From NCBI GenBank assembly GCA_964059195.1, contig CAXKWD010000014.1, positions 1,488,001-1,552,000 of the forward strand: 64,000 nucleotides of DNA, in the 5' to 3' direction. This DNA comes from Ectobius pallidus. Its lineage: Eukaryota; Arthropoda; Insecta; Blattodea; Ectobiidae. Made by a program: the position numbers and the translations under genes. Below, in pieces: positions 1-64,000 of the stretch. Under the pieces are notes generated by a model. That model did not search any database, was not told the DNA's origin, and was given only the letters and a program-made list of their open reading frames with translations. How positions within the stretch are numbered: position 1 is the stretch's first letter; each line of letters starts with the position of its first letter.

Positions 1-3000
1 AGTTTTATAACACCTGACTGTTGCTTAGCAATGACATTTTGAATAAGAAACTGTAGCTTAGCAATGGCATCTCCAAATACGAAACTGTTGCCTAGCAATG
101 TCTTCTATAAGGAATAGCCTTTAATCCCTCAATGATCAATACATACAATGAAAATATCGGTGATATGCTAATGGCATAACAGGTGTTGTAAGTTTTTCCT
201 TAATAGAAAAGAATACTGTTGCCTAGCAATGAGTTTTAAAACACGAAAGTGTTGCCTAGCAATGCCATTTTAAACCGGAAACTGTTGCCTAGCAATGCCA
301 TAAAAAAGAACTGTTGTTTAGCAAAGTCATTTTTAAACACAATATTGCTACCTATTATAAACTTTTAAAAAATATACTGTTGCGTAGCAATGTCAATATC
401 AGACACAAATCTTTTACCTTTCAATGCATTTTTCATGTCGAAACTTTTTCCTAGCAATGTAATTTTTAAAGACAATTTGGCTGCCTAACAATGTAATTTT
501 TCTATCAGGAAAGGTTTGCCTAGCAATCCCAGTCTAAACCGGAAACTGTTGCCTAGCAATTAAGTTTTAAAACAGCTGACTCTTGCTTAGCAATGACATT
601 TTGAACATGAAACTGTAGCTTAGCAATGCCATCTCCAAATACGAAACTGTTGCCAGCAATGTCTTCTATAAGGAAAAGTTTTTGATCCTTCAATGATCAA
701 TACATACAATGAAAATATCGGTGATATGCTAATGTCAAAACATGGGTTGTAAATTTTACTTTAATAGAAAGAATACTGTTGCCTAGCATTGAGTTTTAAA
801 ACACGAAAGTGTTGCCTAGCAATGCCATTTTAAACCGGAAACTGTTGCCTAGCAATGCCATCAAAAAGAACTGTTGCTTAGCAATGTCATTTTTGAACAC
901 AATATTGCTACCTATTAAAAGCTTTTAAAAAAAGATACTGTTGCGTAGCAATGTCAATTTCTGACACGAAACCTTTACCTTTCAATGCATTTTCCCAAGT
1001 AGAAACTTCTTCCTAGCAATGTAATTTTTAAAGACAATTTGGCTGCCTATCAACGTAATTTTTCTATCACGAATGTTTTTCCTAGCCATGCCAGTCTAAA
1101 CCGGAAACTGTAGCCTAGCAATGAAGTTTTAAAACACCTGACTGTTGCTTAGCAATGACATTTTGAACAACAAACTGTAGCTTAGCAATGCCATCTCCAA
1201 ATACGAAACTGTTGCCTAGCAATGTCATCTATAAGGAATAGTTTTTAATCCTTCAATGATCAATACATACAACGAAAATATCGGTGATGTGCTAATGTCA
1301 AAACATGGGTTGTAAATTTTACTTTAATAGAAAGAATACTGTTGCCTAGCAATTACTTTTAAAACACCTAAGTGTTGCCTAGCAATGCCATTTTAAACCG
1401 GAAACTGTTGCCTAGCAATGTCCTCAAAAAGAACTGTTGCTTAGCAATGGCATTTTTAAACACAATATTGCTACCTATTAAAAGCTTTTAAAAAAAGATA
1501 CTGTTGCGTAGCAATGTCAATTTCTGACACGAAACCTTTACCTTTCAATGCATTTTTCAAATTCGAGACTTCTTCCTAGCAATGTAATTTTTAAAGACAA
1601 TTTGGCTACCTAAGAATGTAATTTTTCTATCACGAATGTTTTGCCTAGCCATGCCAGTCTAAACCGGAAACTGTTGCCTAGATATGAAGTTTTATAACAC
1701 CTGACTGTTGCTTAGCAATGACATTTTGAATAAGAAACTGTAGCTTAGCAATGGCATCTCCAAATACGAAACTGTTGCCTAGCAATGTCTTCTATAAGGA
1801 ATAGCCTTTAATCCCTCAATGATCAATACATACAATGAAAATATCGGTGATATGCTAATGGCATAACAGGGGTTGTAAGTTTTTCCTTAATAGAAAAGAA
1901 TACTGTTGCCTAGCAATGAGTTTTAAAACACGAAAGTGTTGCCTAGCAATGCCATTTTAAACCGGAAACTGTTGCCTAGCAATGCCATCAAAAAGAACTG
2001 TTGTTTAGCAAAGTCATTTTTAAACACAATATTGCTACCTATTATAAACTTTTAAAAAATATACCGTTGCGTAGCAATGTCAATATCAGACACAAATCTT
2101 TTACCTTTCAATGCATTTTTCATGTCGAAACTTTTTCCTAGCAATGTAATTTTTAAAGACAATTTGGCTGCCTAACAATGTAATTTTTCTATCAGGAAAG
2201 GTTTGCCTAGCAATCCCAGTCTAAACCGGAAACTGTTGCCTAGCAATTAAGTTTTAAAACAGCTGACTCTTGCTTAGCAATGACATTTTGAACATGAAAC
2301 TGTAGCTTAGCAATGCCATCTCCAAATACGAAACTGTTGCCAGCAATGTCTTCTATAAGGAAAAGTTTTTGATCCTTCAATGATCAATACATACAATGAA
2401 AATATCGGTGATATGCTAATGTCAAAACATGGGTTGTAAATTTTACTTTAATAGAAAGAATACTGTTGCCTAGCATTGAGTTTTAAAACACGAAAGTGTT
2501 GCCTAGCAATGCCATTTTAAACCGGAAACTGTTGCCTAGCAATGCCATCAAAAAGAACTGTTGCTTAGCAATGTAATTTTAAACACAATATTGCTACCTA
2601 TTATAAACTTTTAAATAATATACTGTTGCGTAGCAATGTCAATTTCAGACACGAAACTTTACCTTTCAATGCATTTATGAAAGTCGAAACTTTTTCCTAG
2701 CAATGTAATTTTTAAATACAATTTGACTGCCTAACAATGTAATTTTTCTATCACGAAAGTTTTCCCTAGCCATGCCAGTCTAAAAAGAAACTGTAGCCTA
2801 GCAATGAAGTTTTAAAACACCTGACTGTTGCTTAGCAATGACATTTTGAACAAGAAACTGTAGCTTAGCAATGCCATCTCCAAATACGAAACTGTTGCCT
2901 AGCAATGTCATCTATAAGGAATAGTTTTTAATCCCTCAATGATCAATACATACAATGAAAATATCGGTGATATGCTAATGGCAAAACATTGGTTGTAAAT

Positions 3001-3910
3001 TTTGCTTTAATAGAAAGAATACTGTTGCCTAGCAATGAGTTTTAAAACACGAAAGTGTTGCCTAGCAATGCCATTTTAAACCGCAAACTGTTGCCTAGCA
3101 ATGTCATCAAAAAGAACTGTTGCTTAGTAATGTCATTTTTAAACACAATATTGCTACATATTATAAACTTTTAAAAATATACTGTTGTGTAGCAATGTTA
3201 ATTTCAGACACCAAACTTTTACTTTTCAATGCATTTTTAAAAGTCTAAACGTTTTCCTAGCAATGTAATTTTTAAAGACAATTTGGCTGCTTAACAATGT
3301 AATTTTTCTATGACGAAAGTTTTGCCTAGCCATGCCAGTCTAAACCGGAAACTGTTGCCTAGCAATTAAGTTTTAAAACAAATGACTCTTGCTTAGCAAT
3401 GACATTTTGAACAACAAACTGTAGCTTAGCAATGCCATCTCCAAATACGAAACTGTTGCCTAGCAATGTCATCTATAACGAATAGTTTTTAATCCTTCAA
3501 TTATTAATAGATACAATGAAAAAATCGGTGATATGCTAATGTCAAAACATGGGTTGTAAATTTTACTTTAATAGAAAGAATACTGTTGCCTAGCAATGAG
3601 TTTTAAAACACGAAAGTGTTGCCTAGCAATGCCATTTTAAACCAGAAACTGTTGCCTAGCAATGTCATCAAAAAGAACTGTTGCTTAGCAATGTCATTTT
3701 TGAACACAATATTGCTACCTATTAAAAGCTTTTAAAAAAAGATACTGTTGCGTAGCAATGTCAATTTCTGATTCGAAACCTTTACCTTTCAATGCATTTT
3801 CCCAAGTAGAAACTTCTTCCTAGCAACGTAATTTTTAAAGACAATTTGGCTACCTAAGAATGTAATTTTTCTATCACGAATGTTTTGCCTAGCCATGCCA
3901 GTCTAAACCG

Positions 3911-3945: not shown

Positions 3946-4042
3946 TGACTGTTGCTTAGCAATGACATTTTGAATAAGAAACTGTAGCTTAGCAATGGCA
4001 TCTCCAAATACGAAACTGTTGCCTAGCAATGTCTTCTATAAG

Positions 4043-9527: not shown

Positions 9528-12500
9528 GAAACTGTTGCCTAGCAATTAAGTTTTAAAACAGCTGACTCTTGCTTAGCAATGAGATTTTGAACATGAAACT
9601 GTAACTTAGCAATGCCATCTCCAAATACGAAACTGTTGCCTAGCAATGTCTTCTATAAGGAAAAGTTTTTGATCCTTCAATGATCAATACATACAATGAA
9701 AATATCGGTGATATGCTAATGTCAAAACATGGGTTGTAAATTTTACTTTAATAGAAAGAATACTGCTGCCTAGCAATGAGTTTTAAAACACGAAAGTGTT
9801 GCCTGGCAATGCCATTTTAAACCAGAAACTGTTGCCTAGCAATTTCATCAAAAAGAACTGTTGCTTAGCAATGTCATTTTTTAACACAATATTGCTACCT
9901 ATTTAAAGCTTTTAAAAAAAGATACTGTTGCGTAGCAATGTCAATTTCTGACACGAAACCTTTACTTTTCAATGCATTTTCCAAAGTCGAAACTTCTTCC
10001 TAGCAATGTAATTTTTAAAGACAATTTGGCTGCCTATCAATGTAATTTTTCAATCACAAATGTTTTGCCTAACCATGCCAGTCTAAACCGGAAACTGTTG
10101 CCTAGCAATGAAGTTTTAAAACACCTGACTGTTGCTTAGCAATGACATTTTGAATAAGAAACTGTAGCTTAGCAATGCCATCTCCAAATACGAAACAGTT
10201 GCCTAGCAATGTCATCTATAAGCAATAGCCTTTAATCCCTCAATGATCAATACATACAATGAAAATATCGGTGATATGCTAATGGCATAACAGGGGTTGT
10301 AAATTTTTCTTTAATAGAAAAGAATACTGTTGCCTAGCAATGAGTTTTAAAACACGAAAGTGTTGCCTAGCAATGCCATTTTAAACAGGAAACTGTTGCC
10401 TAGCAATGCCATAAAAAAGAACTGTTGATTAGCAATGTAATTTTTGAACACAATATTGCTACCTATTTAAAGCTTTTAAAAAAATATACTGTTGCGTAGC
10501 AATGTCAATTTCTGACACGAAACCTTTACCTTTCGATGCATTTTCCAAAGTCGAAACTTCTTCCTAGCAATGTAATTTTTAAAGACAATTTGGCTGCATA
10601 TCAACGTAATTTTTCTATCACGAATGTTTTTCCTAGCCATGCCAGTCTAAACCGGAAACTGTAGCATAGCAATGAAGTTTTAAAACACCTGACTGTTGCT
10701 TAGCAATGACATTTTGAACAAGACACTGTAGCTTAGCAATGCCATCTCCAAATACAAAACTGTTGCCTAGCAATGTCATCTATAAGGAATAGTTTTTAAT
10801 CCCTCAATGATCAATACATACAATGAAAATATCGGTGATATGCTAATGGCAAAACATGGGTTGTAAATTTTGCTTTAATAGAAAGAATACTGTTGCCTAG
10901 CAATGAGTTTTAAAACACGAAAGTGTTGCCTAGCAATGCCATTTTAAACCGCAAACTGTTGCCTAGCAATGTCATCAAAAAGAACTGTTGCTTAGTAATG
11001 TCATTTTTAAACACAATATTGCTACCTATTATAAACTTTTAAAAATATACTGTTGTGTAGCAATGTTAATTTCAGACACCAAACTTTTACTTTTCAATGC
11101 ATTTTTAAAAGTCGAAACGTTTTCCTAGCAATCTAATTTTTAAAGACAATTTGGCTGCTTAACAATGTAATTTTTCTATGACGAAAGTTTTGCCTAGCCA
11201 TGCCAGTCTAAACCGGAAACTGTTGCCTAGCAATTAAGTTTTAAAACACCTGACTCTTGCTTAGCAATGACATTTTGAACATGAAACTGTAGCTTAGCAA
11301 TGCCATCTCCAAATACCAAACTGTTGCCTAGCAATGTCATCTATAAGGAATAGTTTTTAATCCTTCAATGATCAATACATACAATGAAATTATCGGTGAT
11401 ATGCTAATGTCAAAACATGGGTTGTAAATTTTACTTTAATAGAAAGAATACTGTTGCCTAGCAATTAGTTTTAAAACACGAAAGTGTTGCCTAGCAATGC
11501 CATTTTAAACCGGAAACTGTTGCCTAGCAATGTCCTCAAAAAGAACTGTTGCTTAGCAATGGCATTTTTAAACACAATATTGCTACCTATTAAAAGCTTT
11601 TAAAAAAAGATACTGTTGCGTAGCAATGTCAATTTCTGAAACGAAAACTTTACCTTTCAATGCATTTTTCAAATTCGAAACTTCTTCCTAGTAATGTAAT
11701 TTTTAAAGACAATTTGGCTACCTAACAATGTAATTTTTCTATCACGAATGTTTTGCCTAGCCATGCCAGTCTAAACCGGAAACTGTTGCCTAGCAATGAA
11801 GTTTTATAACACCTGACTGTTGCTTAGCAATGACATTTTGAATAAGAAACTGTAGCTTAGCAATGCCATCTCCAAATACGAAACTGTTGCCTAGCAATGT
11901 CATCTATAAGGAATAGTTTTTAATCCCTCAATGATCAATACATACAATGAAAATATCGGTGATATGCTAATGGCAAAACATTGGTTGTAAATTTTGCTTT
12001 AATAGAAAGAATACTGTTGCCTAGCAATGAGTTTTAAAACACGAAAGTGTTGCCTAGCAATGCCATTTTAAACCGCAAACTGTTGCCTAGCAATGTCATC
12101 AAAAAGAACTGTTGCTTAGTAATGTCATTTTTAAACACAATATTGCTACATATTATAAACTTTTAAAAATATACTGTTGTGTAGCAATGTTAATTTCTGA
12201 CACTAAACTTTTACTTTTCAATGCATTTTCAAAAGTCGAAACGTTTTCCTAGCAATGTAATTTTTAAAGACAATTTGGCTGCTTAACAATGTAATTTTTC
12301 TATGACGAAAGTTTTGCCTAGCCATGCCAGTCTAAACCGGAAACTGTTGCCTAGCAATTAAGTTTTAAAACAACTGACTCTTGCTTAGCAATGACATTTT
12401 GAACAACAAACTGTAGCTTAGCAATGCCATCTCCAAATACGAAACTGTTGCCTAGCAATGTCATCTATAACGAATAGTTTTTAATCCTTCAATGATCAAT

Positions 12501-15500
12501 AGATACAATGAAAATATCGGTGATATGCTAATGTCAAAACATGGGTTGTAAATTTTACTTTAATAGAAAGAATACTGTTGCCTAGCAATGAGTTTTAAAA
12601 CACGAAAGTGTTGCCTAGCAATGCCATTTTAAACCAGAAACTGTTGCCTAGCAATGTCATCAAAAAGAACTGTTGCTTAGCAATGTCATTTTTGAACACA
12701 ATATTGCTACCTATTAAAAGCTTCTAAAAAAAGATACTGTTGCGTAGCAATGTCAATTTCTGACACGAAACCTTTACCTTTCAATGCATTTTCCCAAGTA
12801 GAAACTTCTTCCTAGCAATGTAATTTTTAAAGACAATTTGGCTGCCTATCAACGTAATTTTTCTATCACGAATGTTTTTCCTAGCCATGCCAGTCTAAAC
12901 CGGAAACTGTAGCCTAGCAATGAAGTTTTAAAACACCTGACTGTTGCTTAGCAATGACATTTTGAACAACAAACTGTAGCTTAGCAATGCCATCTCCAAA
13001 TACGAAACTGTTGCCTAGCAATGTCATCTATAAGGAATAGTTTTTAATCCTTCAATGATCAATACATACAATGAAAATATCGGTGATATGCTAATGTCAA
13101 AACATGGGTTGTAAATTTTACTTTAATAGAAAGAATACTGTTGCCTAGCAATTAGTTTTAAAACACGAAAGTGTTGCCTAGCAATGCCATTTTAAACCGG
13201 AAACTGTTGCCTAGCAATGTCCTCAAAAAGAACTGTTGCTTAGCAATGGCATTTTTAAACACAATATTGCTACCTATTAAAAGCTTTTAAAAAAAGATAC
13301 TGTTGCGTAGCAATGTCAATTTCTGACACGAAACCTTTACCTTTCAATGCATTTTTCAAATTCGAAACTTCTTCCTAGCAATGTAATTTTTAAAGACAAT
13401 TTGGCTACCTAAGAATGTAATTTTTCTATCACGAATGTTTTGCCTAGCCATGCCAGTCTAAACCGGAAACTGTTGCCTAGCAATGAAGTTTTATAACACC
13501 TGACTGTTGCTTAGCAATGACATTTTGAATAAGAAACTGTAGCTTAGCAATGGCATCTCCAAATACGAAACTGTTGCCTAGCAATGTCTTCTATAAGGAA
13601 TAGCCTTTAATCCCTCAATGATCAATACATACAATGAAAATATCGGTGATATGCTAATGGCATAACAGGGGTTGTAAATTTTTCTTTAATAGAAAAGAAT
13701 ACTGTTGCCTAGCAATGAGTTTTAAAACACGAAAGTGTTGCCTAGCAATGCCATTTTAAACAGGAAACTGTTGCCTAGCAATGCCATCAAAAAGAACTGT
13801 TGATTAGCAATGTAATTTTTGAACACAATATTGCTACCTATTTAAAGCTTTTAAAAAAAGATACTGTTGCGTAGCAATGTCAATTTCTGACACGAAACCT
13901 TTACCTTTCAATGCATTTTCCAAAGTCGAAACTTCTTCCTAGCAATGTAATTTTTAAAGACAATTTGGCTGCATATCAACGTAATTTTTCTATCACGAAT
14001 GTTTTTCCTATCCATGCCAGTCTAAACCGGAAACTGTAGCATAGCAATGAAGTTTTAAAACACCTGACTGTTGCTTAGCAATGACATTTAGAACAAGAAA
14101 CTGTAGCTTAGCAATGCCATCTCCAAATACGAAACTGTTGCCTAGCAATGTCATCTATAAGGAATAGTTTTTAATCCTTCAATGATCAATAGATACAATG
14201 AAAATATCGGTGATATGGTAATGTCAAACCATGGGTTGTAAATTATACTTTAATAGAAAGAATACTGTTGCCTAGCAATGAGTTTTAAAACACGAAAGTG
14301 TTGCCGAGCAATGCCATTTTAAACCGGAAACTGTGGCCTAGCAATGCCATCAAAAAGAACTGTTGCTTTGCAATGTAATTTTAAACACAATATTGCTACC
14401 TATTATAAACTTTTAAATAATATACTGTTGCGTAGCAATGTCAATTTCAGACACGAAATTTTTACCTTTCAATGCATTTATGAAAGTCGAAACTTTTTCC
14501 TAGCAATGTAATTTTTAAATACAATTTGACTGCCTAACAATGTAATTTTTCTATCACGAAAGTTTTCCCTAGCCATGCCAGTCTAAAAAGAAACTGTAGC
14601 CTAGCAATGAAGTTTTATAACACCTGACTGTTGCTTAGCAATGACATTTTGAATAAGAAACTGTAGCTTAGCAATGCCATCTCCAAATACGAAACTGTTG
14701 CCTAGCAATGTCATCTATAAGGAATAGTTTTTAATCCCTCAATGATCAATACATACAATGAAAATATCGGTGATATGCTAATGGCAAAACATTGGTTGTA
14801 AATTTTGCTTTAATAGAAAGAATACTGTTGCCTAGCAATGAGTTTTAAAACACGAAAGTGTTGCCTAGCAATGCCATTTTAAACCGCAAACTGTTGCCTA
14901 GCAATGTCATCAAAAAGAACTGTTGCTTAGTAATGTCATTTTTAAACACAATATTGCTACATATTATAAACTTTTAAAAATATACTGTTGTGTAGCAATG
15001 TTAATTTCTGACACTAAACTTTTACTTTTCAATGCATTTTCAAAAGTCGAAACGTTTTCCTAGCAATGTAATTTTTAAAGACAATTTGGCTGCTTAACAA
15101 TGTAATTTTTCTATGACGAAAGTTTTGCCTAGCCATGCCAGTCTAAACCGGAAACTGTTGCCTAGCAATTAAGTTTTAAAACAACTGACTCTTGCTTAGC
15201 AATGACATTTTGAACAACAAACTGTAGCTTAGCAATGCCATCTCCAAATACGAAACTGTTGCCTAGCAATGTCATCTATAACGAATAGTTTTTAATCCTT
15301 CAATGATCAATAGATACAATGAAAATATCGGTGATATGCTAATGTCAAAACATGGGTTGTAAATTTTACTTTAATAGAAAGAATACTGTTGCCTAGCAAT
15401 TAGTTTTAAAACACGAAAGTGTTGCCTAGCAATGCCATTTTAAACCGGAAACTGTTGCCTAGCAATGTCCTCAAAAAGAACTGTTGCTTAGCAATGGCAT

Positions 15501-15713: not shown

Positions 15714-18700
15714 GAAACTGTTGCCTAGCAATGAAGTTTTATAACACCTGACTGTTGCTTAGCAATGACATTTTGAATAAGAAACTGTAGCTTAGCAATG
15801 GCATCTCCAAATACGAAACTGTTGCCTAGCAATGTCTTCTATAAGGAATAGCCTTTAATCCCTCAATGATCAATACATACAATGAAAATATCGGTGATAT
15901 GCTAATGTCAAAACATGGGTTGTAAATTTTACTTTAATAGAAAGAATACTGCTGCCTAGCAATGAGTTTTAAAACACGAAAGTGTTGCCTGGCAATGCCA
16001 TTTTAAACCAGAAACTGTTGCCTAGCAATTTCATCAAAAAGAACTGTTGCTTAGCAATGTCATTTTTTAACACAATATTGCTACCTATTTAAAGCTTTTA
16101 AAAAAAGATACTGTTGCGTAGCAATGTCAATTTCTGACACGAAACCTTTACTTTTCAATGCATTTTCCAAAGTCGAAACTTCTTCCTAGCAATGTAATTT
16201 TTAAAGACAATTTGGCTGCCTATCAATGTAATTTTTCAATCACAAATGTTTTGCCTAACCATGCCAGTCTAAACCGGAAACTGTTGCCTAGCAATGAAGT
16301 TTTAAAACACCTGACTGTTGCTTAGCAATGACATTTTGAATAAGAAACTGTAGCTTAGCAATGCCATCTCCAAATACGAAACAGTTGCCTAGCAATGTCA
16401 TCTATAAGCAATAGCCTTTAATCCCTCAATGATCAATACATACAATGAAAATATCGGTGATATGCTAATGGCATAACAGGGGTTGTAAATTTTTCTTTAA
16501 TAGAAAAGAATACTGTTGCCTAGCAATGAGTTTTAAAACACGAAAGTGTTGCCTAGCAATGCCATTTTAAACAGGAAACTGTTGCCTAGCAATGCCATAA
16601 AAAAGAACTGTTGATTAGCAATGTAATTTTTGAACACAATATTGCTACCTATTTAAAGCTTTTAAAAAAATATACTGTTGCGTAGCAATGTCAATTTCTG
16701 ACACGAAACCTTTACCTTTCGATGCATTTTCCAAAGTCGAAACTTCTTCCTAGCAATGTAATTTTTAAAGACAATTTGGCTGCATATCAACGTAATTTTT
16801 CTATCACGAATGTTTTTCCTAGCCATGCCAGTCTAAACCGGAAACTGTAGCATAGCAATGAAGTTTTAAAACACCTGACTGTTGCTTAGCAATGACATTT
16901 TGAACAAGACACTGTAGCTTAGCAATGCCATCTCCAAATACAAAACTGTTGCCTAGCAATGTCATCTATAAGGAATAGTTTTTAATCCCTCAATGATCAA
17001 TACATACAATGAAAATATCGGTGATATGCTAATGGCAAAACATGGGTTGTAAATTTTGCTTTAATAGAAAGAATACTGTTGCCTAGCAATGAGTTTTAAA
17101 ACACGAAAGTGTTGCCTAGCAATGCCATTTTAAACCGCAAACTGTTGCCTAGCAATGTCATCAAAAAGAACTGTTGCTTAGTAATGTCATTTTTAAACAC
17201 AATATTGCTACCTATTATAAACTTTTAAAAATATACTGTTGTGTAGCAATGTTAATTTCAGACACCAAACTTTTACTTTTCAATGCATTTTTAAAAGTCG
17301 AAACGTTTTCCTAGCAATCTAATTTTTAAAGACAATTTGGCTGCTTAACAATGTAATTTTTCTATGACGAAAGTTTTGCCTAGCCATGCCAGTCTAAACC
17401 GGAAACTGTTGCCTAGCAATTAAGTTTTAAAACACCTGACTCTTGCTTAGCAATGACATTTTGAACATGAAACTGTAGCTTAGCAATGCCATCTCCAAAT
17501 ACCAAACTGTTGCCTAGCAATGTCATCTATAAGGAATAGTTTTTAATCCTTCAATGATCAATACATACAATGAAATTATCGGTGATATGCTAATGTCAAA
17601 ACATGGGTTGTAAATTTTACTTTAATAGAAAGAATACTGTTGCCTAGCAATTAGTTTTAAAACACGAAAGTGTTGCCTAGCAATGCCATTTTAAACCGGA
17701 AACTGTTGCCTAGCAATGTCCTCAAAAAGAACTGTTGCTTAGCAATGGCATTTTTAAACACAATATTGCTACCTATTAAAAGCTTTTAAAAAAAGATACT
17801 GTTGCGTAGCAATGTCAATTTCTGAAACGAAAACTTTACCTTTCAATGCATTTTTCAAATTCGAAACTTCTTCCTAGTAATGTAATTTTTAAAGACAATT
17901 TGGCTACCTAACAATGTAATTTTTCTATCACGAATGTTTTGCCTAGCCATGCCAGTCTAAACCGGAAACTGTTGCCTAGCAATGAAGTTTTATAACACCT
18001 GACTGTTGCTTAGCAATGACATTTTGAATAAGAAACTGTAGCTTAGCAATGCCATCTCCAAATACGAAACTGTTGCCTAGCAATGTCATCTATAAGGAAT
18101 AGTTTTTAATCCCTCAATGATCAATACATACAATGAAAATATCGGTGATATGCTAATGGCAAAACATTGGTTGTAAATTTTGCTTTAATAGAAAGAATAC
18201 TGTTGCCTAGCAATGAGTTTTAAAACACGAAAGTGTTGCCTAGCAATGCCATTTTAAACCGCAAACTGTTGCCTAGCAATGTCATCAAAAAGAACTGTTG
18301 CTTAGTAATGTCATTTTTAAACACAATATTGCTACATATTATAAACTTTTAAAAATATACTGTTGTGTAGCAATGTTAATTTCTGACACTAAACTTTTAC
18401 TTTTCAATGCATTTTCAAAAGTCGAAACGTTTTCCTAGCAATGTAATTTTTAAAGACAATTTGGCTGCTTAACAATGTAATTTTTCTATGACGAAAGTTT
18501 TGCCTAGCCATGCCAGTCTAAACCGGAAACTGTTGCCTAGCAATTAAGTTTTAAAACAACTGACTCTTGCTTAGCAATGACATTTTGAACAACAAACTGT
18601 AGCTTAGCAATGCCATCTCCAAATACGAAACTGTTGCCTAGCAATGTCATCTATAACGAATAGTTTTTAATCCTTCAATGATCAATAGATACAATGAAAA

Positions 18701-20775
18701 TATCGGTGATATGCTAATGTCAAAACATGGGTTGTAAATTTTACTTTAATAGAAAGAATACTGTTGCCTAGCAATGAGTTTTAAAACACGAAAGTGTTGC
18801 CTAGCAATGCCATTTTAAACCAGAAACTGTTGCCTAGCAATGTCATCAAAAAGAACTGTTGCTTAGCAATGTCATTTTTGAACACAATATTGCTACCTAT
18901 TAAAAGCTTCTAAAAAAAGATACTGTTGCGTAGCAATGTCAATTTCTGACACGAAACCTTTACCTTTCAATGCATTTTCCCAAGTAGAAACTTCTTCCTA
19001 GCAATGTAATTTTTAAAGACAATTTGGCTGCCTATCAACGTAATTTTTCTATCACGAATGTTTTTCCTAGCCATGCCAGTCTAAACCGGAAACTGTAGCC
19101 TAGCAATGAAGTTTTAAAACACCTGACTGTTGCTTAGCAATGACATTTTGAACAACAAACTGTAGCTTAGCAATGCCATCTCCAAATACGAAACTGTTGC
19201 CTAGCAATGTCATCTATAAGGAATAGTTTTTAATCCTTCAATGATCAATACATACAATGAAAATATCGGTGATATGCTAATGTCAAAACATGGGTTGTAA
19301 ATTTTACTTTAATAGAAAGAATACTGTTGCCTAGCAATTAGTTTTAAAACACGAAAGTGTTGCCTAGCAATGCCATTTTAAACCGGAAACTGTTGCCTAG
19401 CAATGTCCTCAAAAAGAACTGTTGCTTAGCAATGGCATTTTTAAACACAATATTGCTACCTATTAAAAGCTTTTAAAAAAAGATACTGTTGCGTAGCAAT
19501 GTCAATTTCTGACACGAAACCTTTACCTTTCAATGCATTTTTCAAATTCGAAACTTCTTCCTAGCAATGTAATTTTTAAAGACAATTTGGCTACCTAAGA
19601 ATGTAATTTTTCTATCACGAATGTTTTGCCTAGCCATGCCAGTCTAAACCGGAAACTGTTGCCTAGTAATGAAGTTTTATAACACCTGACTGTTGCTTAG
19701 CAATGACATTTTGAATAAGAAACTGTAGCTTAGCAATGGCATCTCCAAATACGAAACTGTTGCCTAGCAATGTCTTCTATAAGGAATAGCCTTTAATCCC
19801 TCAATGATCAATACATACAATGAAAATATCGGTGATATGCTAATGGCATAACAGGGGTTGTAAATTTTTCTTTAATAGAAAAGAATACTGTTGCCTAGCA
19901 ATGAGTTTTAAAACACGAAAGTGTTGCCTAGCAATGCCATTTTAAACAGGAAACTGTTGCCTAGCAATGCCATCAAAAAGAACTGTTGATTAGCAATGTA
20001 ATTTTTGAACACAATATTGCTACCTATTTAAAGCTTTTAAAAAAAGATACTGTTGCGTAGCAATGTCAATTTCTGACACGAAACCTTTACCTTTCAATGC
20101 ATTTTCCAAAGTCGAAACTTCTTCCTAGCAATGTAATTTTTAAAGACAATTTGGCTGCATATCAACGTAATTTTTCTATCACGAATGTTTTTCCTATCCA
20201 TGCCAGTCTAAACCGGAAACTGTAGCATAGCAATGAAGTTTTAAAACACCTGACTGTTGCTTAGCAATGACATTTAGAACAAGAAACTGTAGCTTAGCAA
20301 TGCCATCTCCAAATACGAAACTGTTGCCTAGCAATGTCATCTATAAGGAATAGTTTTTAATCCTTCAATGATCAATAGATACAATGAAAATATCGGTGAT
20401 ATGGTAATGTCAAACCATGGGTTGTAAATTATACTTTAATAGAAAGAATACTGTTGCCTAGCAATGAGTTTTAAAACACGAAAGTGTTGCCGAGCAATGC
20501 CATTTTAAACCGGAAACTGTGGCCTAGCAATGCCATCAAAAAGAACTGTTGCTTTGCAATGTAATTTTAAACACAATATTGCTACCTATTATAAACTTTT
20601 AAATAATATACTGTTGCGTAGCAATGTCAATTTCAGACACGAAATTTTTACCTTTCAATGCATTTATGAAAGTCGAAACTTTTTCCTAGCAATGTAATTT
20701 TTAAATACAATTTGACTGCCTAACAATGTAATTTTTCTATCACGAAAGTTTTCCCTAGCCATGCCAGTCTAAAAA
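15714..20775 (+). repeat. Monomers 29-37, near-identical second copy (offset 6,186)
   Basis: Landmarks at 15865, 16428, 16992, 17553, 18116, 18677, 19240, 19803, 20367. Every landmark is exactly 6,186 bp after its counterpart in 9679-14181. All the rare markers of the first copy recur, including CCTATCCATG near 20193, TTATACTTT near 20429 and GCTTTGCAATG near 20551. Homology runs from about 15864 to 20802 (source about 9678-14616). By eye only one difference stood out: TAGTAATGAAG near 19664 against TAGCAATGAAG. Confidence 0.9.
15864..15907 (+). other. A/B' chimeric monomer, left edge of the second 6,186-offset copy
   Basis: Up to GCCTTTAATCCCTC the monomer is type A; from GCTAATGTCAAAACATGG on it is B' (with GCTGCCTAG and GCCTGGCAATG downstream). 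The join lies in the block from AATGATC to GGTGATATGCTAATG, which is invariant between the two parents, so it cannot be placed more closely. Confidence 0.8.
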
Positions 20776-23700
20776 GAAACTGTAGCCTAGCAATGAAGTT
20801 TTAAAACACCTGACTGTTGCTTAGCAATGACATTTTGAACAAGAAACTGTAGCTTAGCAATGCCATCTCCAAATACGAAACTGTTGCCTAGCAATGTCAT
20901 CTATAACGAATAGTTTTTAATCCTTCAATGATCAATACATACAATGAAAATATCGGTGATATGCTAATGTCAAAACATGGGTTGTAAATTTTACTTTAAT
21001 AGAAAGAATACTGTTGCCTAGCAATTAGTTTTAAAACACGAAAGTGTTGCCTAGCAATGCCATTTTAAACCGGAAACTGTTGCCTAGCAATGTCCTCAAA
21101 AAGAACTGTTGCTTAGCAATGGCATTTTTAAACACAATATTGCTACCTATTAAAAGCTTTTAAAAAAAGATACTGTTGCGTAGCAATGTCAATTTCTGAC
21201 ACGAAACCTTTACCTTTCAATGCATTTTTCAAATTCGAAACTTCTTCCTAGCAATGTAATTTTTAAAGACAATTTGGCTACCTAAGAATGTAATTTTTCT
21301 ATCACGAATGTTTTGCCTAGCCATGCCAGTCTAAACCGGAAACTGTTGCCTAGATATGAAGTTTTATAACACCTGACTGTTGCTTAGCAATGACATTTTG
21401 AATAAGAAACTGTAGCTTAGCAATGGCATCTCCAAATACGAAACTGTTGCCTAGCAATGTCTTCTATAAGGAATAGCCTTTAATCCCTCAATGATCAATA
21501 CATACAATGAAAATATCGGTGATGTGCTAATGGCATAACAGGGGTTGTAAGTTTTTCCTTAATAGAAAAGAATACTGTTGCCTAGCAATGAGTTTTAAAA
21601 CACGAAAGTGTTGCCTAGCAATGCCATTTTAAACCGGAAACTGTTGCCTAGCAATGCCATCAAAAAGAACTGTTGTTTAGCAAAGTCATTTTTAAACACA
21701 ATATTGCTACCTATTATAAACTTTTAAAAAATATACCGTTGCGTAGCAATGTCAATATCAGACACAAATCTTTTACCTTTCAATGCATTTTTCACGTCGA
21801 AACTTTTTCCTAGCAATGTAATTTTTAAAGACAATTTGGCTGCCTAACAATGTAATTTTTCTATCAGGAAAGGTTTGCCTAGCAATCCCAGTCTAAACCG
21901 GAAACTGTTGCCTAGCAATTAAGTTTTAAAACAGCTGACTCTTGCTTAGCAATGACATTTTGAACATGAAACTGTAGCTTAGCAATGCCATCTCCAAATA
22001 CGAAACTGTTGCCAGCAATGTCTTCTATAAGGAAAAGTTTTTGATCCTTCAATGATCAATACATACAATGAAAATATCGGTGATATGCTAATGTCAAAAC
22101 ATGGGTTGTAAATTTTACTTTAATAGAAAGAATACTGTTGCCTAGCATTGAGTTTTAAAACACGAAAGTGTTGCCTAGCAATGCCATTTTAAACCGGAAA
22201 CTGTTGCCTAGCAATGCCATCAAAAAGAACTGTTGCTTAGCAATGTAATTTTAAACACAATATTGCTACCTATTATAAACTTTTAAATAATATACTGTTG
22301 CGTAGCAATGTCAATTTCAGACACGAAACTTTACCTTTCAATGCATTTATGAAAGTCGAAACTTTTTCCTAGCAATGTAATTTTTAAATACAATTTGACT
22401 GCCTAACAATGTAATTTTTCTATCACGAAAGTTTTCCCTAGCCATGCCAGTCTAAAAAGAAACTGTAGCCTAGCAATGAAGTTTTAAAACACCTGACTGT
22501 TGCTTAGCAATGACATTTTGAACAAGAAACTGTAGCTTAGCAATGCCATCTCCAAATACGAAACTGTTGCCTAGCAATGTCATCTATAAGGAATAGTTTT
22601 TAATCCCTCAATGATCAATACATACAATGAAAATATCGGTGATATGCTAATGGCAAAACATTGCTTGTAAATTTTGCTTTAATAGAAAGAATACTGTTGC
22701 CTAGCAATGAGTTTTAAAACACGAAAGTGTTGCCTAGCAATGCCATTTTAAACCGCAAACTGTTGCCTAGCAATGTCATCAAAAAGAACTGTTGCTTAGT
22801 AATGTCATTTTTAAACACAATATTGCTACATATTATAAACTTTTAAAAATATACTGTTGTGTAGCAATGTTAATTTCAGACACCAAACTTTTACTTTTCA
22901 ATGCATTTTTAAAAGTCTAAACGTTTTCCTAGCAATGTAATTTTTAAAGACAATTTGGCTGCTTAACAATGTAATTTTTCTATGACGAAAGTTTTGCCTA
23001 GCCATGCCAGTCTAAACCGGAAACTGTTGCCTAGCAATTAAGTTTTAAAACAACTGACTCTTGCTTAGCAATGACATTTTGAACAACAAACTGTAGCTTA
23101 GCAATGCCATCTCCAAATACGAAACTGTTGCCTAGCAATGTCATCTATAACGAATAGTTTTTAATCCTTCAATTATTAATAGATACAATGAAAATATCGG
23201 TGATATGCTAATGTCAAAACATGGGTTGTAAATTTTACTTTAATAGAAAGAATACTGTTGCCTAGCAATGAGTTTTAAAACACGAAAGTGTTGCCTAGCA
23301 ATGCCATTTTAAACCAGAAACTGTTGCCTAGCAATGTCATCAAAAAGAACTGTTGCTTAGCAATGTCATTTTTGAACACAATATTGCTACCTATTAAAAG
23401 CTTTTAAAAAAAGATACTGTTGCGTAGCAATGTCAATTTCTGATTCGAAACCTTTACCTTTCAATGCATTTTCCCAAGTAGAAACTTCTTCCTAGCAACG
23501 TAATTTTTAAAGACAATTTGGCTACCTAAGAATGTAATTTTTCTATCACGAATGTTTTGCCTAGCCATGCCAGTCTAAACCGGAAACTGTTGCCTAGCAA
23601 TGAAGTTTTATAACACCTGACTGTTGCTTAGCAATGACATTTTGAATAAGAAACTGTAGCTTAGCAATGGCATCTCCAAATACGAAACTGTTGCCTAGCA

Positions 23701-28072: not shown

Positions 28073-28090
28073 GAAACTGTTGCCTAGCAA
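28066..28090 (+). other. Monomer-loss junction, C tail to B head
   Basis: A type C monomer normally leads into type A (AATGAAGTTTTATAAC). Here, after GTTGCCTAGCAA, the text becomes TTAAGTTTTAAAACAGC, the head of a B monomer. The relative at 5183-6307 has an A monomer at this point. Offsets fall from 22,478 before the join to 21,916 after it, a change of 562, so exactly one monomer has been lost here or gained in the other copy. Confidence 0.78.
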
Positions 28091-36100: not shown

Positions 36101-37857
36101 AGATACAATGAAAATATCGGTGATATGCTAATGTCAAAACATGGGTTGTAAATTTTACTTTAATAGAAAGAATACTGTTGCCTAGCAATGAGTTTTAAAA
36201 CACGAAAGTGTTGCCTAGCAATGCCATTTTAAACCAGAAACTGTTGCCTAGCAATGTCATCAAAAAGAACTGTTGCTTAGCAATGTCATTTTTGAACACA
36301 ATATTGCTACCTATTAAAAGCTTTTAAAAAAATATACTGTTGCGTAGCAATGTCAATTTCTGACACGAAACCTTTACCTTTCAATGCATTTTCCCAAGTA
36401 GAAACTTCTTCCTAGCAATGTAATTTTTAAAGACAATTTGGCTGCCTATCAACGTAATTTTTCTATCACGAATGTTTTTCCTAGCCATGCCAGTCTAAAC
36501 CGGAAACTGTAGCCTAGCAATGAAGTTTTAAAACACCTGACTGTTGCTTAGCAATGACATTTTGAACAACAAACTGTAGCTTAGCAATGCCATCTCCAAA
36601 TACGAAACTGTTGTCTAGCAATGTCATCTATAAGGAATAGTTTTTAATCCTTCAATGATCAATACATACAACGAAAATATCGGTGATGTGCTAATGTCAA
36701 AACATGGGTTGTAAATTTTACTTTAATAGAAAGAATACTGTTGCCTAGCAATTAGTTTTAAAACACGAAATTGTTGCCTAGCAATGCCATTTTAAACCGG
36801 AAACTGTTGCCTAGCAATGTCCTCAAAAAGAACTGTTGCTTAGCAATGGCATTTTTAAACACAATATTGCTACCTATTAAAAGCTTTTAAAAAAAGATAC
36901 TGTTGCGTAGCAATGTCAATTTCTGACACGAAACCTTTACCTTTCAATGCATTTTTCAAATTCGAAACTTCTTCCTAGCAATGTAATTTTTAAAGACAAT
37001 TTGGCTACCTAAGAATGTAATTTTTCTATCACGAATGTTTTGCCTAGCCTTGCCAGTCTAAACCGGAAACTGTTGCCTAGCAATGAAGTTTTATAACACC
37101 TGACTGTTGCTTAGCAATGACATTTTGAATAAGAAACTGTAGCTTAGCAATGGCATCTCCAAATACGAAACTGTTGCCTAGCAATGTCTTCTATAAGGAA
37201 TAGCCTTTAATCCCTCAATGATCAATACATACAATGAAAATATCGGTGATATGCTAATGGCATAACAGGGGTTGTAAATTTTTCTTTAATAGAAAAGAAT
37301 ACTGTTGCCTAGCAATGAGTTTTAAAACACGAAAGTGTTGCCTAGCAATGCCATTTTAAACAGGAAACTGTTGCCTAGCAATGCCATCTCCAAATACGAA
37401 ACTGTTGCCTAGCAATGTCATCTATAAGGAATAGTTTTTAATCCTTCAATGATCAATAGATACAATGAAAATATCGGTGATATGGTAATGTCAAACCATG
37501 GGTTGTAAATTTTACTTTAATAGAAAGAATACTGTTGCCTAGCAATGAGTTTTAAAACACGAAAGTGTTGCCGAGCAATGCCATTTTAAACCGGAAACTG
37601 TGGCCTAGCAATGCCATCAAAAAGAACTGTTGCTTAGCAATGTAATTTTAAACACAATATTGCTACCTATTATAAACTTTTAAATAATATACTGTTGCGT
37701 AGCAATGTCAATTTCAGACACGAAACTATTACCTTTCAATGCATTTATGAAAGTCGAAACTTTTTCCTAGCAATGTAATTTTTAAATACAATTTGACTGC
37801 CTAACAATGTAATTTTTCTATCACGAAAGGTTTGCCTAGCAATGACAGTCTAAACCG
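33127..37857 (+). repeat. Monomers 60-68, order D E A'' B A E C A'' F(deleted)
   Basis: Landmarks at 33278, 33839, 34402, 34964, 35528, 36091, 36654, 37217, 37448. The last two are only 231 bp apart because 333 bp are missing between s10 of monomer 67 and s3 of monomer 68. Monomers 66-67 match 15-16 at offset 28,663. Monomers 68-69 match 17-18 at offset 28,330, and the difference equals the deletion. Monomer 63 has a 2-base longer A run in s14 (TTCAAAAATTCG near 35265), and monomer 64 appears to mix A (head), C (middle) and other tails. Confidence 0.82.
37376..37388 (+). other. Junction of a 333-bp internal deletion
   Basis: Here s10 of an A'' monomer runs directly into s3 of the next F monomer. 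The 13-base TAGCAATGCCATC at the join is common to both parents. In the intact relative the two copies of GCAATGCCATC lie at 8715 and 9048, 333 bp apart, which is ten subrepeats. The join thus marks an exchange between subrepeats in different registers. Confidence 0.88.
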
Positions 37858-51500: not shown

Positions 51501-54500
51501 AATATCGGTGATATGCTAATGTCAAAACAAGGGTTGTAAATTTTACTTTAATAGAAAGAATACTGTTGCCTAGCAATGAGTTTTAAAACACGAAAGTGTT
51601 GCCTAGCAATGCCATTTTAAACCAGAAACTGTTGCCTAGCAATGTCATCAAAAAGAACTGTTGCTTAGCAATGTCATTTTTGAACACAATATTGCTACCT
51701 ATTAAAAGCTTTTAAAAAAAGATACTGTTGCGTAGCAATGTCAATTTCTGACACGAAACCTTTACCTTTCAATGCATTTTCCCAAGTAGAAACTTCTTCC
51801 TAGCAACGTAATTTTTAAAGACAATTTGGCTACCTAAGAATGTAATTTTTCTATCACGAATGTTTTGCCTAGCCATGCCAGTCTAACCCGGAAACTGTTG
51901 CCTAGCAATGAAGTTTTATAACACCTGACTGTTGCTTAGAAATGACATTTTGAATAAGAAACTGTAGCTTAGCAATGGCATCTCCAAATACGAAACTGTT
52001 GCCTAGCAATGTCTTCTATAAGGAATAGCCTTTAATCCCTCAATGATCAATACATACAATGAAAATATCGGTGATATGCTAATGGCATAACAGGGGTTGT
52101 AAGTTTGTCCTTAATAGAAAAGAATACTGTTGCCTAGCAATGAGTTTTAAAACACGAAAGTGTTGCCTAGCAATGCCATTTTAAACCGGAAACTGTTGCC
52201 TAGCAATGCCATCAAAAAGAACTGTTGTTTAGCAAAGTCATTTTTAAACACAATATTGCTACCTATTATAAACTTTTAAAAAATATACTGTTGCGTAGCA
52301 ATGTCAATATCAGACACAAATCTTTTACCTTTCAATGCATTTTTCATGTCGAAACTTTTTCCTAGCAATGTAATTTTTAAAGACAATTTGGCTGCCTAAC
52401 AATGTAATTTTTCTATCAGGAAAGGTTTGCCTAGCAATCCCAGTCTAAACCGGAAACTGTTGCCTAGCAATTAAGTTTTAAAACAGCTGACTCTTGCTTA
52501 GCAATGACATTTTGAACATGAAACTGTAGCTTAGCAATGCCATCTCTAAATACGAAACTGTTGCCAGCAATGTCTTCTATAAGGAAAAGTTTTTGATCCT
52601 TCAATGATCTATACATACAATGAAAATATCGGTGATATGCTAATGTCAAAACATGGGTTGTAAATTTTACTTTAATAGAAAGAATACTGTTGCCTAGCAT
52701 TGAGTTTTAAAACACGAAAGTGTTGCCTAGCAATGCCATTTTAAACCGGAAACTGTTGCCTAGCAATGCCATCAAAAAGAACTGTTGCTTAGCAATGTAA
52801 TTTTAAACACAATATAGCTACCTATTATAAACTTTTAAATAATATACTGTTGCGTAGCAATGTCAATATCAGACACAAATCTTTTACCTTTCAATGCATT
52901 TTTCATGTCGAAACTTTTTCCTAGCAATGTAATTTTTAAAGACAATTTGGCTGCCTAACAATGTAATTTTTCTATCAGGAAAGGTGTGCCTAGCAATCCC
53001 AGTCTAAACCGGAAACTTTTGCCTAGCAATTAAGTTTTAAAACAGCTGACTCTTGCTTAGCAATGACATTTTGAACATGAAACTGTAGCTTAGCAATGCC
53101 ATCTCCAAATACGAAACTTTTGCCTAGCAATGTCTTCTATAAGGAAAAGTTTTTGATCCTTCAATGATCAATACATACAATGAAAATATCGGTGATATGC
53201 TAATGTCAAAACATGGGTTGCAAATTTTACTTTAATAGAAAGAATACTGTTGCCTAGCATTGAGTTTTAAAACACGAAAGTGTTGCCTAGCAATGCCATT
53301 TTAAACCGGAAACTGTTGCCTAGCAATGCCATCAAAAAGAACTGTTGCTTAGCAATGTAATTTTAAACACAATATTGCTACCTATTATAAACTTTTAAAT
53401 AATATACTGTTGCGTAGCAATGTCAATTTCAGACACGAAACTTTACCTTTCAATGCATTTTTGAAAGTCGAAACTTTTTCCTAGCAATGTAATTTTTAAA
53501 TACAATTTGACTGCCTAACAATGTAATTTTTCTATCACGAAAGTTTTCCCTAGCCATGCCAGTCTAAAAGGAAATTGTAGCCTAGCAATGAAGTTTTAAA
53601 ACACCTGACTGTTGCTTAGCAATGACATTTTGAACAAGAAACTGTAGCTTAGCAATGACATCTCCAAATACGAAACTGTTGCCTAGCAATTTCATCTATA
53701 AGGAATAGTTTTTTATCCTTCAATGATCAATAGATACAATGAAAATATCGGTGATATGGTAATGTCAAACCATGGGTTGTAAATTTTACTTTAATAGAAA
53801 GAATACTGTTGCCTAGCAATGAGTTTTAAAACACGAAAGTGTTGCCGAGCAATGCCATTTTAAACCGCAAACTGTTGCCTAGCAATGTCCTCAAAAAGAA
53901 CTGTTGCTTTGCAATGGCATTTTTAAACACAATATTGCTACCTATTAAAAGCTTTTAAAAAAAGATACTGTTGCGTAGCAATGTCAATTTCTGACACGAA
54001 ACCTTTACCTTTCAATGCATTTTTCAAATTCGAAACTTCTTCCTAGCAATGTAATTTTTAAAGACAATTTGGCTACCTAAGAGTGTAATTTTTCTATCAC
54101 GAATGTTTTGCCTAGCCATGCCAGTCTAAACCGGAAACTGTTGCCTAGCAATGAAGTTTTATAACACCTGACTGTTGCTTAGCAATGACATTTTGAATAA
54201 GAAACTGTAGCTTAGCAATGGCATCTCAAAATACGAAACTGTTGCCTAGCAATGTCTTCTATAAGGAATAGCCTTTAATCCCTCAATGATCAATACATAC
54301 AATGAAAATATCGGTGATATGCTAATGGCATAACAGGGGTTGTAAGTTTTTCCTTAATAGAAAAGAATACTATTGCCTAGCAATGAGTTTTAAAACACGA
54401 AAGTGTTGCCTAGCAATGCCATTTTAAACCGGAAACTGTTGCCTAGCAATGCCATCAAAAAGAACTGTTGTTTAGCAAAGTCATTTTTAAACACAATATT

Positions 54501-62300: not shown

Positions 62301-64000
62301 GCAATGTCATCAAAAAGAACTGTTGCTTAGCAATGTAATTTTTGAACACAATATTGCTACCTATTTAAAGCTTTTAAAAAAAGATACTGTTGCGTAGCAA
62401 TGTCAATTTCTGACACGAAACCTTTACCTTTCAATGCATTTTTCAAATTCGAAACTTCTTCCTAGCAATGTAATTCTTAAAGACAATTTGGCTACCTAAC
62501 AATGTAATTTTTCTATCACGAATGTTTTGCCTAGCCATGCCAGTCTAAACCGGAAACTGTTGCCTAAGAATTAAGTTTTATAACACCTGACTGTTGCTTA
62601 GCAATGACATTTGGAATAAGAAACTGTAGCTTAGCAATGCCATCTCCAAATACGAAACTGTTGCCTAGCAATGTCATCTATAAGGAATAGTTTTTAATCC
62701 CTCAATGATCAATACATACAATGAAAATATTGGTGATATGCTAATGGCAAAACATTGGTTGTAAATTTTGCTTTAATAGAAAGAATACTGTTGCCTAGCA
62801 ATGAGTTTTAAAACACGAAAGTGTTGCCTAGCAATGCCATTTTAAACCGCAAACTGTTGCCTATCAATGTCATCAAAAAGAACTGTTGCTTAGTAATGTC
62901 ATTTTTAAACACAATATTGCTACCTATTATAAACTTTTAAAAATATACTGTCGTGTAGCAATGTTAATTTCAGACACCAAACTTTTACTTTTCAATGCAT
63001 TTTTAAAAGTCGAAACGTTTTCCTAGCAATGTAATTTTTGAAGACAATTTGGCTGCTTAACAATGTAATTTTTCTATGACGAAAGTTTTGCCTAGCCATG
63101 CCAGTCTAAACCGGAAACTGTTGCCTAGCAATTAAGTTTTAAAACAACTGACTCTTGCTTAGCAATAACATTTTGAACAAGAAACTGTAGCTTAGCAATG
63201 CCATCTATAACGAATAGTTTTTAATCCTTCAATGATCAATAGATACAATGAAAATATCGGTGATATGCTAATGTCAAAACATGGGTTGTAAATTTTACTT
63301 TAATAGAAAGAATACTGTTGCCTAGCAATGAGTTTTAAAACACGAAAGTGTTGCCTAGCAATGCCATTTTAAACCAGAAACTTTTGCCTAGCAATGTCAT
63401 CAAAAAAACTGTTGCTTAGCAATGTCATTTTTGAACACAATATTGCTACCTATTAAAAGCTTTTAAAAAAAGACACTGTTGCGTAGCAATGTCAATTTCT
63501 GACACGAAACCTTTACCTTTCAATGCATTTTCCAAAGTCGAAACTTCTTCCTAGCAATGTAATTTTTAAAGACAATTTGGCTGCCTATCAACGTAATTTT
63601 TTTATCACGAATGTTTTTCCTAGCCATGCCAGTCTAAATCGGAAACTGTAGCCTAGCAATGAAGTTTTAAAACACCTGACTGTTGCTTAGCAATGACATT
63701 TTGAACAAGAAACTCTAGCTTAGCAATGCCATCTCCAAATACGAAACTGTTGCCTAGCAATGTCATCTATAAGGAATAGTTTTTAAACCTTCAATGATCA
63801 ATACATACAATGAAAATATCGGTGATATGCTAATGTCAAAACATGGGTTGTAAATTTTACTTTAATAGAAAGAATACTGTTGCCTAGCAATGAGTTTTAA
63901 AACACGAAAGTGTTGCCTAGCAATGCCATTTTAAACCGGAAACTGTTGCCTAGCAATGTCCTCAAAAAGAACTGTTGCTTAGCAATGGCATTTTTAAACA
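56379..64000 (+). repeat. Monomers 102-115, mosaic of earlier blocks
   Basis: Landmarks at 56530, 57093, 57654, 58213, 58776, 59337, 59896, 60458, 61021, 61583, 62141, 62704, 63231, 63793; types C A B D/E A B E C A B D D E C. Monomers 102-104 match 10-12 at offset 51,347, sharing GAAAGTTTTGCC and GCCAAGCAATG. Monomer 105 has a D head (ACATTGG) and an E tail (AACCAGAAAC), switching near 58290-58357. Monomers 108-111 match 53-56 at offset 30,552. Between 107 and 108 a B monomer leads straight into an E monomer, where the relative at 28.2-29.3 kb has an A' monomer in between. The last monomer is cut by the window end in s11. Confidence 0.82.
63191..63206 (+). other. Junction of a 34-bp (one-subrepeat) deletion
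   Basis: Monomer 114 reads GCAATGCCATCTATAACG, where all its type E relatives have an extra 34 bases (the end of s3 and most of s4, including GAAACTGTTGCCTAGCAATG). CATCT occurs on both sides of the lost segment, which explains the clean join. It accounts fully for the 527-bp spacing between the landmarks at 62704 and 63231. Confidence 0.88.

What the first reader, a model, noticed from the sequence alone, without database searches (positions are those of the whole stretch)
1..64000. Three-level nested satellite: ~33 bp x 17 = ~561 bp, then multi-monomer higher-order strings
The sequence directly shows a 33-bp subrepeat, a 17-subrepeat monomer, and monomer strings that recur at fixed offsets. 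I do not recognise this as any described satellite family. The intact position-specific identity of the subrepeats shows that the short tandem came first and the 17-mer was amplified later.
Basis: partly seen in the sequence, partly recalled or inferred. Interest (0 to 1): 0.75.

Follow-up and report, generated by a model that had tools for sequence, protein, structure and literature searches.

The report
Three-tier nested satellite DNA array
The window is one stretch of a large, non-coding tandem-repeat family in which 33-base repeats were copied in sets of seventeen, and those sets were copied again in longer strings; it is a well-understood kind of DNA with an unusually readable record of how such repeats grow.

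Summary
The 64 kb are one head-to-tail satellite: 114 monomers, 112 of them 558-564 bp. The consensus tiles as 17 subrepeats of about 33 bp. Between monomer types, subrepeats at the same position are 94% identical, at different positions 65%, so the 33-bp array came first. Multi-monomer strings recur, some nearly identical (5 monomers in tandem, 0.03% different), but there is no single higher-order period. The window lies in contig C14 of a 2.12-Gb genome with 272,082 exact core 14-mers, roughly 45 Mb of satellite by extrapolation. Other blocks read show the same 17-unit order with their own unit lengths. Clearest case: the longest exact repeat inside the monomer (27 bp, 265 bp apart) predicts exchange products of 827 and 297 bp; C1 carries an 828-bp unit, a relic on C3 one of about 298 bp, and the junctions read fall at that tract. 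Mechanism: out-of-register recombination at two levels.

The parts
1..64000 (+). continuous head-to-tail satellite array, part of contig C14 (2,696,214 bp), C14:1488001-1552000
134..694 (+). first complete monomer by my anchor (561 bp); 17 subrepeats of about 33 bp. The phase of the start is arbitrary
22054..24858 (+). monomers 40-44 (D E C A B), first copy of a 5-monomer tandem duplication
   Evidence: match at lag 5 over 5.12 monomers, 0.03% different; exact repeats of 1634 and 1236 bp at offset 2805
24859..27663 (+). monomers 45-49 (D E C A B), second copy of that duplication
9682..14743 (+). monomers 18-26, first copy of the longest near-identical string (lag 11)
   Evidence: 8.79 monomers, 0.02% different; exact repeat of 3804 bp at offset 6186
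15868..20929 (+). monomers 29-37, second copy of that string
27664..28225 (+). hybrid monomer J (left C, right A), flanked by B and D as a one-monomer loss by exchange predicts
   Evidence: 15 mismatches to the best single parent, 2 to a two-parent mosaic; 0 of 1000 column permutations as good
52606..53165 (+). hybrid monomer M (left D, right A) between A and D, as a one-monomer gain by exchange predicts
   Evidence: 17 mismatches single, 4 mosaic; 0 of 1000 permutations
37220..37450 (+). 231-bp monomer: loss of 333 bp, joining subrepeat 3 to subrepeat 13 at the same phase
   Evidence: no mismatch to its best full-length match outside the gap; pair 3/13 is rank 5 of 136 in similarity
62707..63233 (+). 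527-bp monomer: loss of 34 bp joining subrepeats 13 and 14 at the same phase
   Evidence: pair 13/14 is only rank 45 of 136

Best explanation
This is a neutral, non-coding satellite built by out-of-register recombination at nested levels. (1) An old 33-bp tandem array diverged until its units were about 65% alike. (2) A block of 17 units became the amplified monomer (about 562 bp). (3) Monomer types about 6-7% apart were copied as multi-monomer strings (5, 8 and 11 monomers in this window). (4) Exchanges one monomer out of register make hybrid monomers rather than identical neighbours, which is enough to explain why no two neighbours are of the same type. (5) Exchanges between different subrepeats delete or add blocks of subrepeats; some of these products were then amplified into locus-specific units, such as 828 bp (17+8) on C1 and about 298 bp (17-8) on C3. 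Steps 1-3 follow from measured divergence; 4 and 5 from junctions read directly; the molecular agent (unequal crossing-over, break-induced replication or another route) is inferred. No function needs to be assumed.
For: Age order: JC distances about 0.47 between subrepeats, 0.066 between monomer types, 0.0003-0.005 between recent strings. Tandem string duplications at lags 5, 8 and 11. Same label adjacent 0 of 113 against 16.5 expected. J and M are two-parent hybrids (0 of 1000 permutations as good) with the left parent's usual predecessor and the right parent's usual successor. Losses of 333 and 34 bp join subrepeats in phase. The longest exact intra-monomer repeat, 27 bp at 265 bp, predicts 827 and 297; C1 anchor intervals are 828 (7), 827 (1) and 822 (1) of 9; C3 gives a 298-bp tandem of 3.1 copies and intervals 301, 296 and one of 973; the junctions read are 10-to-3 on C1 (2 copies in L006) and 2-to-11 on C3 (2 copies in L094), at that tract. 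No ORF of 100 aa, no tRNA, no Rfam match. Core positions are no less variable than spacers between monomers (p=0.61), and in well-kept units the core is, if anything, more often polymorphic (0.27 against 0.22, p=0.04); the most conserved 25-bp window is within chance (p=0.22).
Against: Between subrepeats the 15-bp core agrees more than the rest of the unit (14.4 against 12.1 of 17, p=0.004), which could be old selection. F does not show the simple flank exchange, and H is unclear. Of the subrepeat-level junctions read, C1, C3 and the 231-bp monomer use pairs ranked 4, 4 and 5 of 136, but the 527-bp monomer uses rank 45, and a 5-to-1 junction on C8 fits no similar pair (5/17 is rank 121). The second longest exact repeat (25 bp; sizes 366 and 758) was not seen as a unit, though few loci were read. 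C10's 541-bp form and C4's 526-529 and 571-bp forms are not explained. The consensus used comes from the window, not from C1 or C3.
Confidence: 0.85

Rival explanations
1. Centromeric satellite kept by function: the arrays are the centromere (or its flank) of each chromosome, and a DNA-binding protein reads the GTTGC-N3-GCAAT dyad, as CENP-B reads its box.
For: One-orientation interior blocks on C1 (76.67 to between 77.2 and 77.3 Mb of 229, apart from a strand switch near its left edge), C4 (from between 151.30 and 151.50 to between 152.65 and 152.70 of 191) and C8 (satellite at 52.744 and 52.85 Mb), and a block at the start of C10. The dyad GTTGC-N3-GCAA occurs 696 times in the window. Core more conserved than the rest between subrepeats.
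Against: No extra core conservation among present monomers (p=0.61). Blocks not shown on C2, C5, C7, C9, C11-C13; the rare 18-mer used also missed the C1 block, so its silence means little. A relic (C3) and an isolated piece (C1:30.07 Mb) lie elsewhere. Chromatin data not available; the organism could be holocentric.
Confidence: 0.3
2. Much of the higher-order order is an assembly artefact: long-read assembly collapsed or mis-joined near-identical strings.
For: C14 is a 2.7-Mb contig that was satellite at 13 of 13 sampled points and up to about 740 bases from its right end; such contigs are prone to error (general knowledge).
Against: Blocks on C1, C4, C8 and C10 sit in contigs of 141-229 Mb with the same 17-unit order. 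The main monomer types differ by 4-8%, above usual consensus error. Errors would hardly create hybrids with matched flanks or plus-8 and minus-8 junction products.
Confidence: 0.07
3. A transposable element with internal 33-bp repeats is the source, and the array is a by-product of its tandem insertion.
For: The left edge of the C1 block lies in a reverse-transcriptase-like reading frame (PF00078 hits, best E 4e-23); an isolated part-monomer sits at C1:30.07 Mb.
Against: The window holds no ORF of 100 aa; I recognise no element ends at the isolated piece (by eye); the reverse transcriptase is more simply the site into which the array grew or was inserted.
Confidence: 0.08

Closest known systems
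Cervid satellite I and bovine satellite 1.715 (31-bp subrepeats)
   Same: Monomer of roughly 1 kb with internal 31-bp subrepeats, centromeric satellite in muntjacs (PMC2760882, passages seen; the bovine link from a reference title there).
   Different: 31 against 33 bp, about 1 kb against 562 bp; mammals; sequence relation not tested here.
Primate alpha satellite higher-order repeats
   Same: Blocks of several monomers amplified and homogenised together (PMC8122249, passages seen).
   Different: 171-bp monomer (recalled) without this subrepeat tier; regular units, whereas this window has no single period (the C1 block has).
RFX X-box (recalled, from no call)
   Same: GTTGCC-TA-GCAA resembles the recalled inverted-repeat site in both half-sites but for one base.
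   Different: Of 696 dyads GTTGC-N3-GCAA 693 end in T and none in C; binding untested.

Membership tests
Satellite DNA | long head-to-tail tandem array, non-coding | tested here: met
   114 intervals, one strand; 0 ORFs of 100 aa; C14 sampled from 1 to 2.60 Mb, 13 of 13 points
Satellite DNA | abundant in the genome, several loci | tested here: met
   272,082 exact 14-mers in 2.12 Gb; blocks on C1, C4, C8, C10; copies also on contigs C15, C17, C19, C24, C50, C378
Higher-order repeat | multi-monomer units more alike than their monomers | tested here: met
   strings at 0.02-0.83% difference against about 7% between monomers
Higher-order repeat | regular unit of fixed period | tested here: not met
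   no dominant lag in the window; the C1 block does have one, 8 of 9 intervals 827-828 bp
Centromeric satellite | one block per chromosome | tested here: inconclusive
   blocks seen on C1, C4, C8, C10; others not mapped, the genome search did not complete again
Centromeric satellite | CENP-A chromatin | not testable with these tools
   no chromatin data
Cervid satellite I / bovine 1.715 | sequence homology of the subrepeat | not tested
   no copy of those sequences or satellite database was at hand
RFX X-box | perfect inverted GTTGC-N3-GCAAC (recalled) | tested here: not met
   0 occurrences in the window; 693 of 696 dyads have T in the last position

The most novel reading that the evidence does not exclude
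The 33-bp unit is a protein-binding dyad (RFX-like) that once had, or in some arrays still has, a centromere-related role, so that roughly 2% of a 2.1-Gb genome is an array of such sites; and the lengths of new higher-order units can be predicted from the longest identity inside the monomer.
Probability: 0.08. Interest if true: 0.7.

Novelty: new member of a known kind. Interest (0 to 1): 0.4.

Why it matters
Nested satellites are known, but cases in which each growth step can be read and a rule tested are useful. Here the longest identity inside the monomer predicts both product sizes of one kind of exchange (17+8 and 17-8 subrepeats), and both are found, at two loci. This makes a specific claim about how new higher-order units are seeded, which can be tested over all arrays of one assembly. 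The flat substitution pattern (93 transitions, 189 transversions) is a second lead.

Tried and rejected
A single higher-order period: rejected. Reading the absence of identical neighbours (0 of 113) as a special rule: rejected, since exchange one monomer out of register makes hybrids, not duplicates. A conserved protein box in present monomers: no support; the 40-bp anchor looked conserved, but the most conserved window is within chance (p=0.22). Hairpin or cruciform: weak; z -0.01 for a 34-mer and -2.32 for one 24-mer; a whole monomer was not folded (one search failed). Hits in viral contigs (2 stretches with the exact 17-mer, one in coding-like, one in terminator-like DNA by eye): taken as chance. 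Longer patterns in viral contigs and genome contigs: none. Plasmids and phages, two monomers as query: none. Of 4 papers listed for '561 bp' with satellite terms I looked at passages of 2, which concern other things. A nematode origin from the low transition share: dropped; the C. elegans paper gives 1:1 to 1.32:1. Arthropod telomere repeats: no run of three or more TTAGG or TTAGGG in the loci held; the TTAGG words at the start of C1 are about 50 bp (or multiples of it) apart and belong to another tandem repeat. The organism was not settled.
Full report
What is there. The window is entirely one satellite. Autocorrelation has peaks at 33/34, 67 and 101 and at 561/563, 1124 and 1684. An anchor found 115 times cuts the window into 114 monomers: 112 of 558-564 bp, one of 231 and one of 527 bp. 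The core 12-mer occurs 444 times on the + strand and 0 times on the other. There are no closed ORFs of 100 aa, no tRNA and no Rfam match at the gathering score.

The 33-bp tier. The consensus monomer aligns to a 34-bp unit as 17 units, score 569 against at most 41 in 30 shuffles; units 5, 7, 15, 16 and 17 are degraded. Between the five main monomer types, subrepeats at the same position are 0.937 identical (n=170), at different positions 0.649 (n=2720). Similarity does not fall with distance between units (0.67-0.69 at circular distances 1-8).

The string tier. Clustering at 3.5% gives 15 labels, five of them common (A 20, B 16, C 28, D 17, E 15 of 114). The consensus sequences of these five differ by 4-8%. 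Neighbours never bear the same label (0 of 113; 16.5 expected, minimum 6 in 5000 shuffles). There is no dominant lag. The repeated strings are recent: 8.79 monomers at lag 11 with 0.02% difference, 5.12 at lag 5 with 0.03%, 6.16 at lag 8 with 0.37%; the longest exact repeat is 3804 bp. The string of nine labels alone is not remarkable given the transitions (212 of 500 Markov orders reach it); its near-identity in letters is.

How it grows. Monomers J and M are two-parent hybrids (15 to 2 and 17 to 4 mismatches; 0 of 1000 permutations as good). J (C/A) is preceded by B and followed by D, M (D/A) preceded by A and followed by D, as exchange one monomer out of register predicts (B to C 11 times, A to D 11 times). 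The permutation test was run on 11 of the 16 monomers of rare type listed: both F, both H, J, M and the one G tested had 0 of 1000, K 4, N 8, the two I 51 and 82. F's left neighbour fits conversion as well as exchange, and H's flanks are unclear. The two short monomers lost 333 and 34 bp by joins between subrepeats 3/13 and 13/14 in the same phase.

The genome. After many unanswered requests the genome search placed the window at C14:1488001-1552000 of a 2,124,618,226-base assembly of 410 contigs, with 97,799 forward and 174,283 reverse exact copies of GTTGCCTAGCAATG. At the window's density (385 in 64 kb, pattern with Y at one place) that is about 45 Mb, 2.1% of the assembly; this is an extrapolation, and other blocks may be less dense. 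C14 was satellite on the + strand at 13 of 13 sampled points; at its right end the satellite stops about 740 bases before the contig end. C1-C13 are 229 to 26 Mb long. Blocks were read on C1 (first listed copy of the block at 76.6678 Mb, satellite at 77.2, none at 77.3 Mb; the strand switches near 76.672 Mb), C4 (satellite at 151.50, not at 151.30; last listed copy 152.648, none at 152.70 Mb; minus strand), C8 (satellite at 52.744 and 52.85, none at 52.73 and 52.76 Mb) and C10 (satellite at base 1 and at 0.80, none at 1.20 Mb). I did not read these blocks through. A rare 18-mer variant occurs 1670 times; the answer lists 100 places, in contig order: C3 1, C4 29, C6 1, C8 1, C10 4, C14 10, C15 3, C17 1, C19 1, C24 49. 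It misses the C1 block, so it maps only part of the arrays.

Locus-specific units. Tiling by the 17 reference subrepeats shows the same order at the blocks read on C1, C4, C8, C10, C50 and in the window (gapless tiling, so single units are now and then missed or misnamed). C1 repeats 3..17, 1..10, then jumps from 10 to 3: 25 subrepeats; of 9 anchor intervals 7 are 828, one 827 and one 822 bp. The C3 relic repeats 11..17, 1, 2 and jumps from 2 to 11: 9 subrepeats, 298 bp, 3.1 copies at 86% matches (intervals 301, 296 and one of 973). These are the plus-8 and minus-8 products of one kind of exchange, between subrepeats 2 and 10. The longest exact repeat inside the consensus is 27 bp at a distance of 265. 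On C1 (L006) two junctions have subrepeat 10 before and 3 after the tract, while four ordinary passages are 10-11 or 2-3; on C3 (L094) two junctions have 2 before and 11 after (one search shows the C1 junction in letters, but its C3 alignment lay at another place, a 6-to-11 join). C3's tract itself has since changed by a few bases. C4 has monomers of 526-529, 561-563 and 571 bp, C10 a 541-bp form, and C8 a 5-to-1 join; these are not explained. By nearest neighbour, C4 monomers pair with C4 in 27 of 27 cases and C378 with C378 in 13 of 15; window monomers (every sixth, 19) pair with the window in 12; C14 points far from the window (19) pair with C378 in 9, with each other in 8 and with the window in 2; C8 in 0 of 3, C10 in 2 of 3 and C50 in 1 of 2 with their own. 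Homogenisation is thus local at some loci and shared between C14 and C378.

Function. Core positions are not less variable than spacers between monomers (0.035 against 0.045, p=0.61); within well-kept units means are equal (0.0357 against 0.0364), with slightly more core positions polymorphic (0.27 against 0.22, p=0.04). The most conserved window is within chance (p=0.22). Between subrepeats the core agrees more (14.4 against 12.1 of 17; p=0.004), although the unit used was itself derived from these repeats. The core resembles RFX X-box sites from memory only; the perfect inverted form is absent. I therefore favour neutral growth, with a centromeric role possible and untested.

Mutation pattern. 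Distinct substitutions among 112 monomers are 93 transitions and 189 transversions, the 1:2 expected without any transition bias (p=1e-8 against 1:1, 0.95 against 1:2). It is similar for singletons (41:79), variants in 2-4 copies (25:42), common variants (25:49) and between subrepeats (38:68), but 2:19 for variants seen 5-14 times. C. elegans isolates show 1:1 and 1.32:1 (PMC3151237, passages). I have no unique sequence comparison for this genome.

Literature. Full-text searches for the 14-base core (one paper, on PCR prediction by its title, not opened), shorter cores with 'satellite DNA' (one paper, on Prep1, not opened), '561 bp' with satellite terms (four, two looked at in passages) and '562/563/828 bp' (none) found no description; the library holds open-licence PubMed Central papers only. 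The nearest known architecture is cervid satellite I with 31-bp subrepeats (PMC2760882, passages); alpha-satellite higher-order repeats were seen in passages of a review (PMC8122249).

Noticed in passing
window 1-64000: Substitutions among monomers show no transition bias (93 transitions, 189 transversions), also for singletons and between subrepeats.
   Followed up: partly
L025 (C1:76671000-76673000) and L006: Near its left edge the C1 block changes strand, and its edge lies inside a reverse-transcriptase-like reading frame.
   Followed up: partly
L115 (C4:151300000-151301500): A different tandem repeat with lags 1120 and 248 lies about 200 kb or less from the C4 block.
   Followed up: no
L083 (C1:1-2000): A tandem repeat of about 50 bp at the start of C1, judged from the spacing of TTAGG words; not a telomere repeat.
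   Followed up: no
L003 (C1:30.0737 Mb): An isolated piece of about nine or ten subrepeats outside any array seen.
   Followed up: partly
L118 (C10:800000-801500) and C4 loci L095-L101, L114: Monomer forms of 541, 526-529 and 571 bp that the 27-bp rule does not explain.
   Followed up: no
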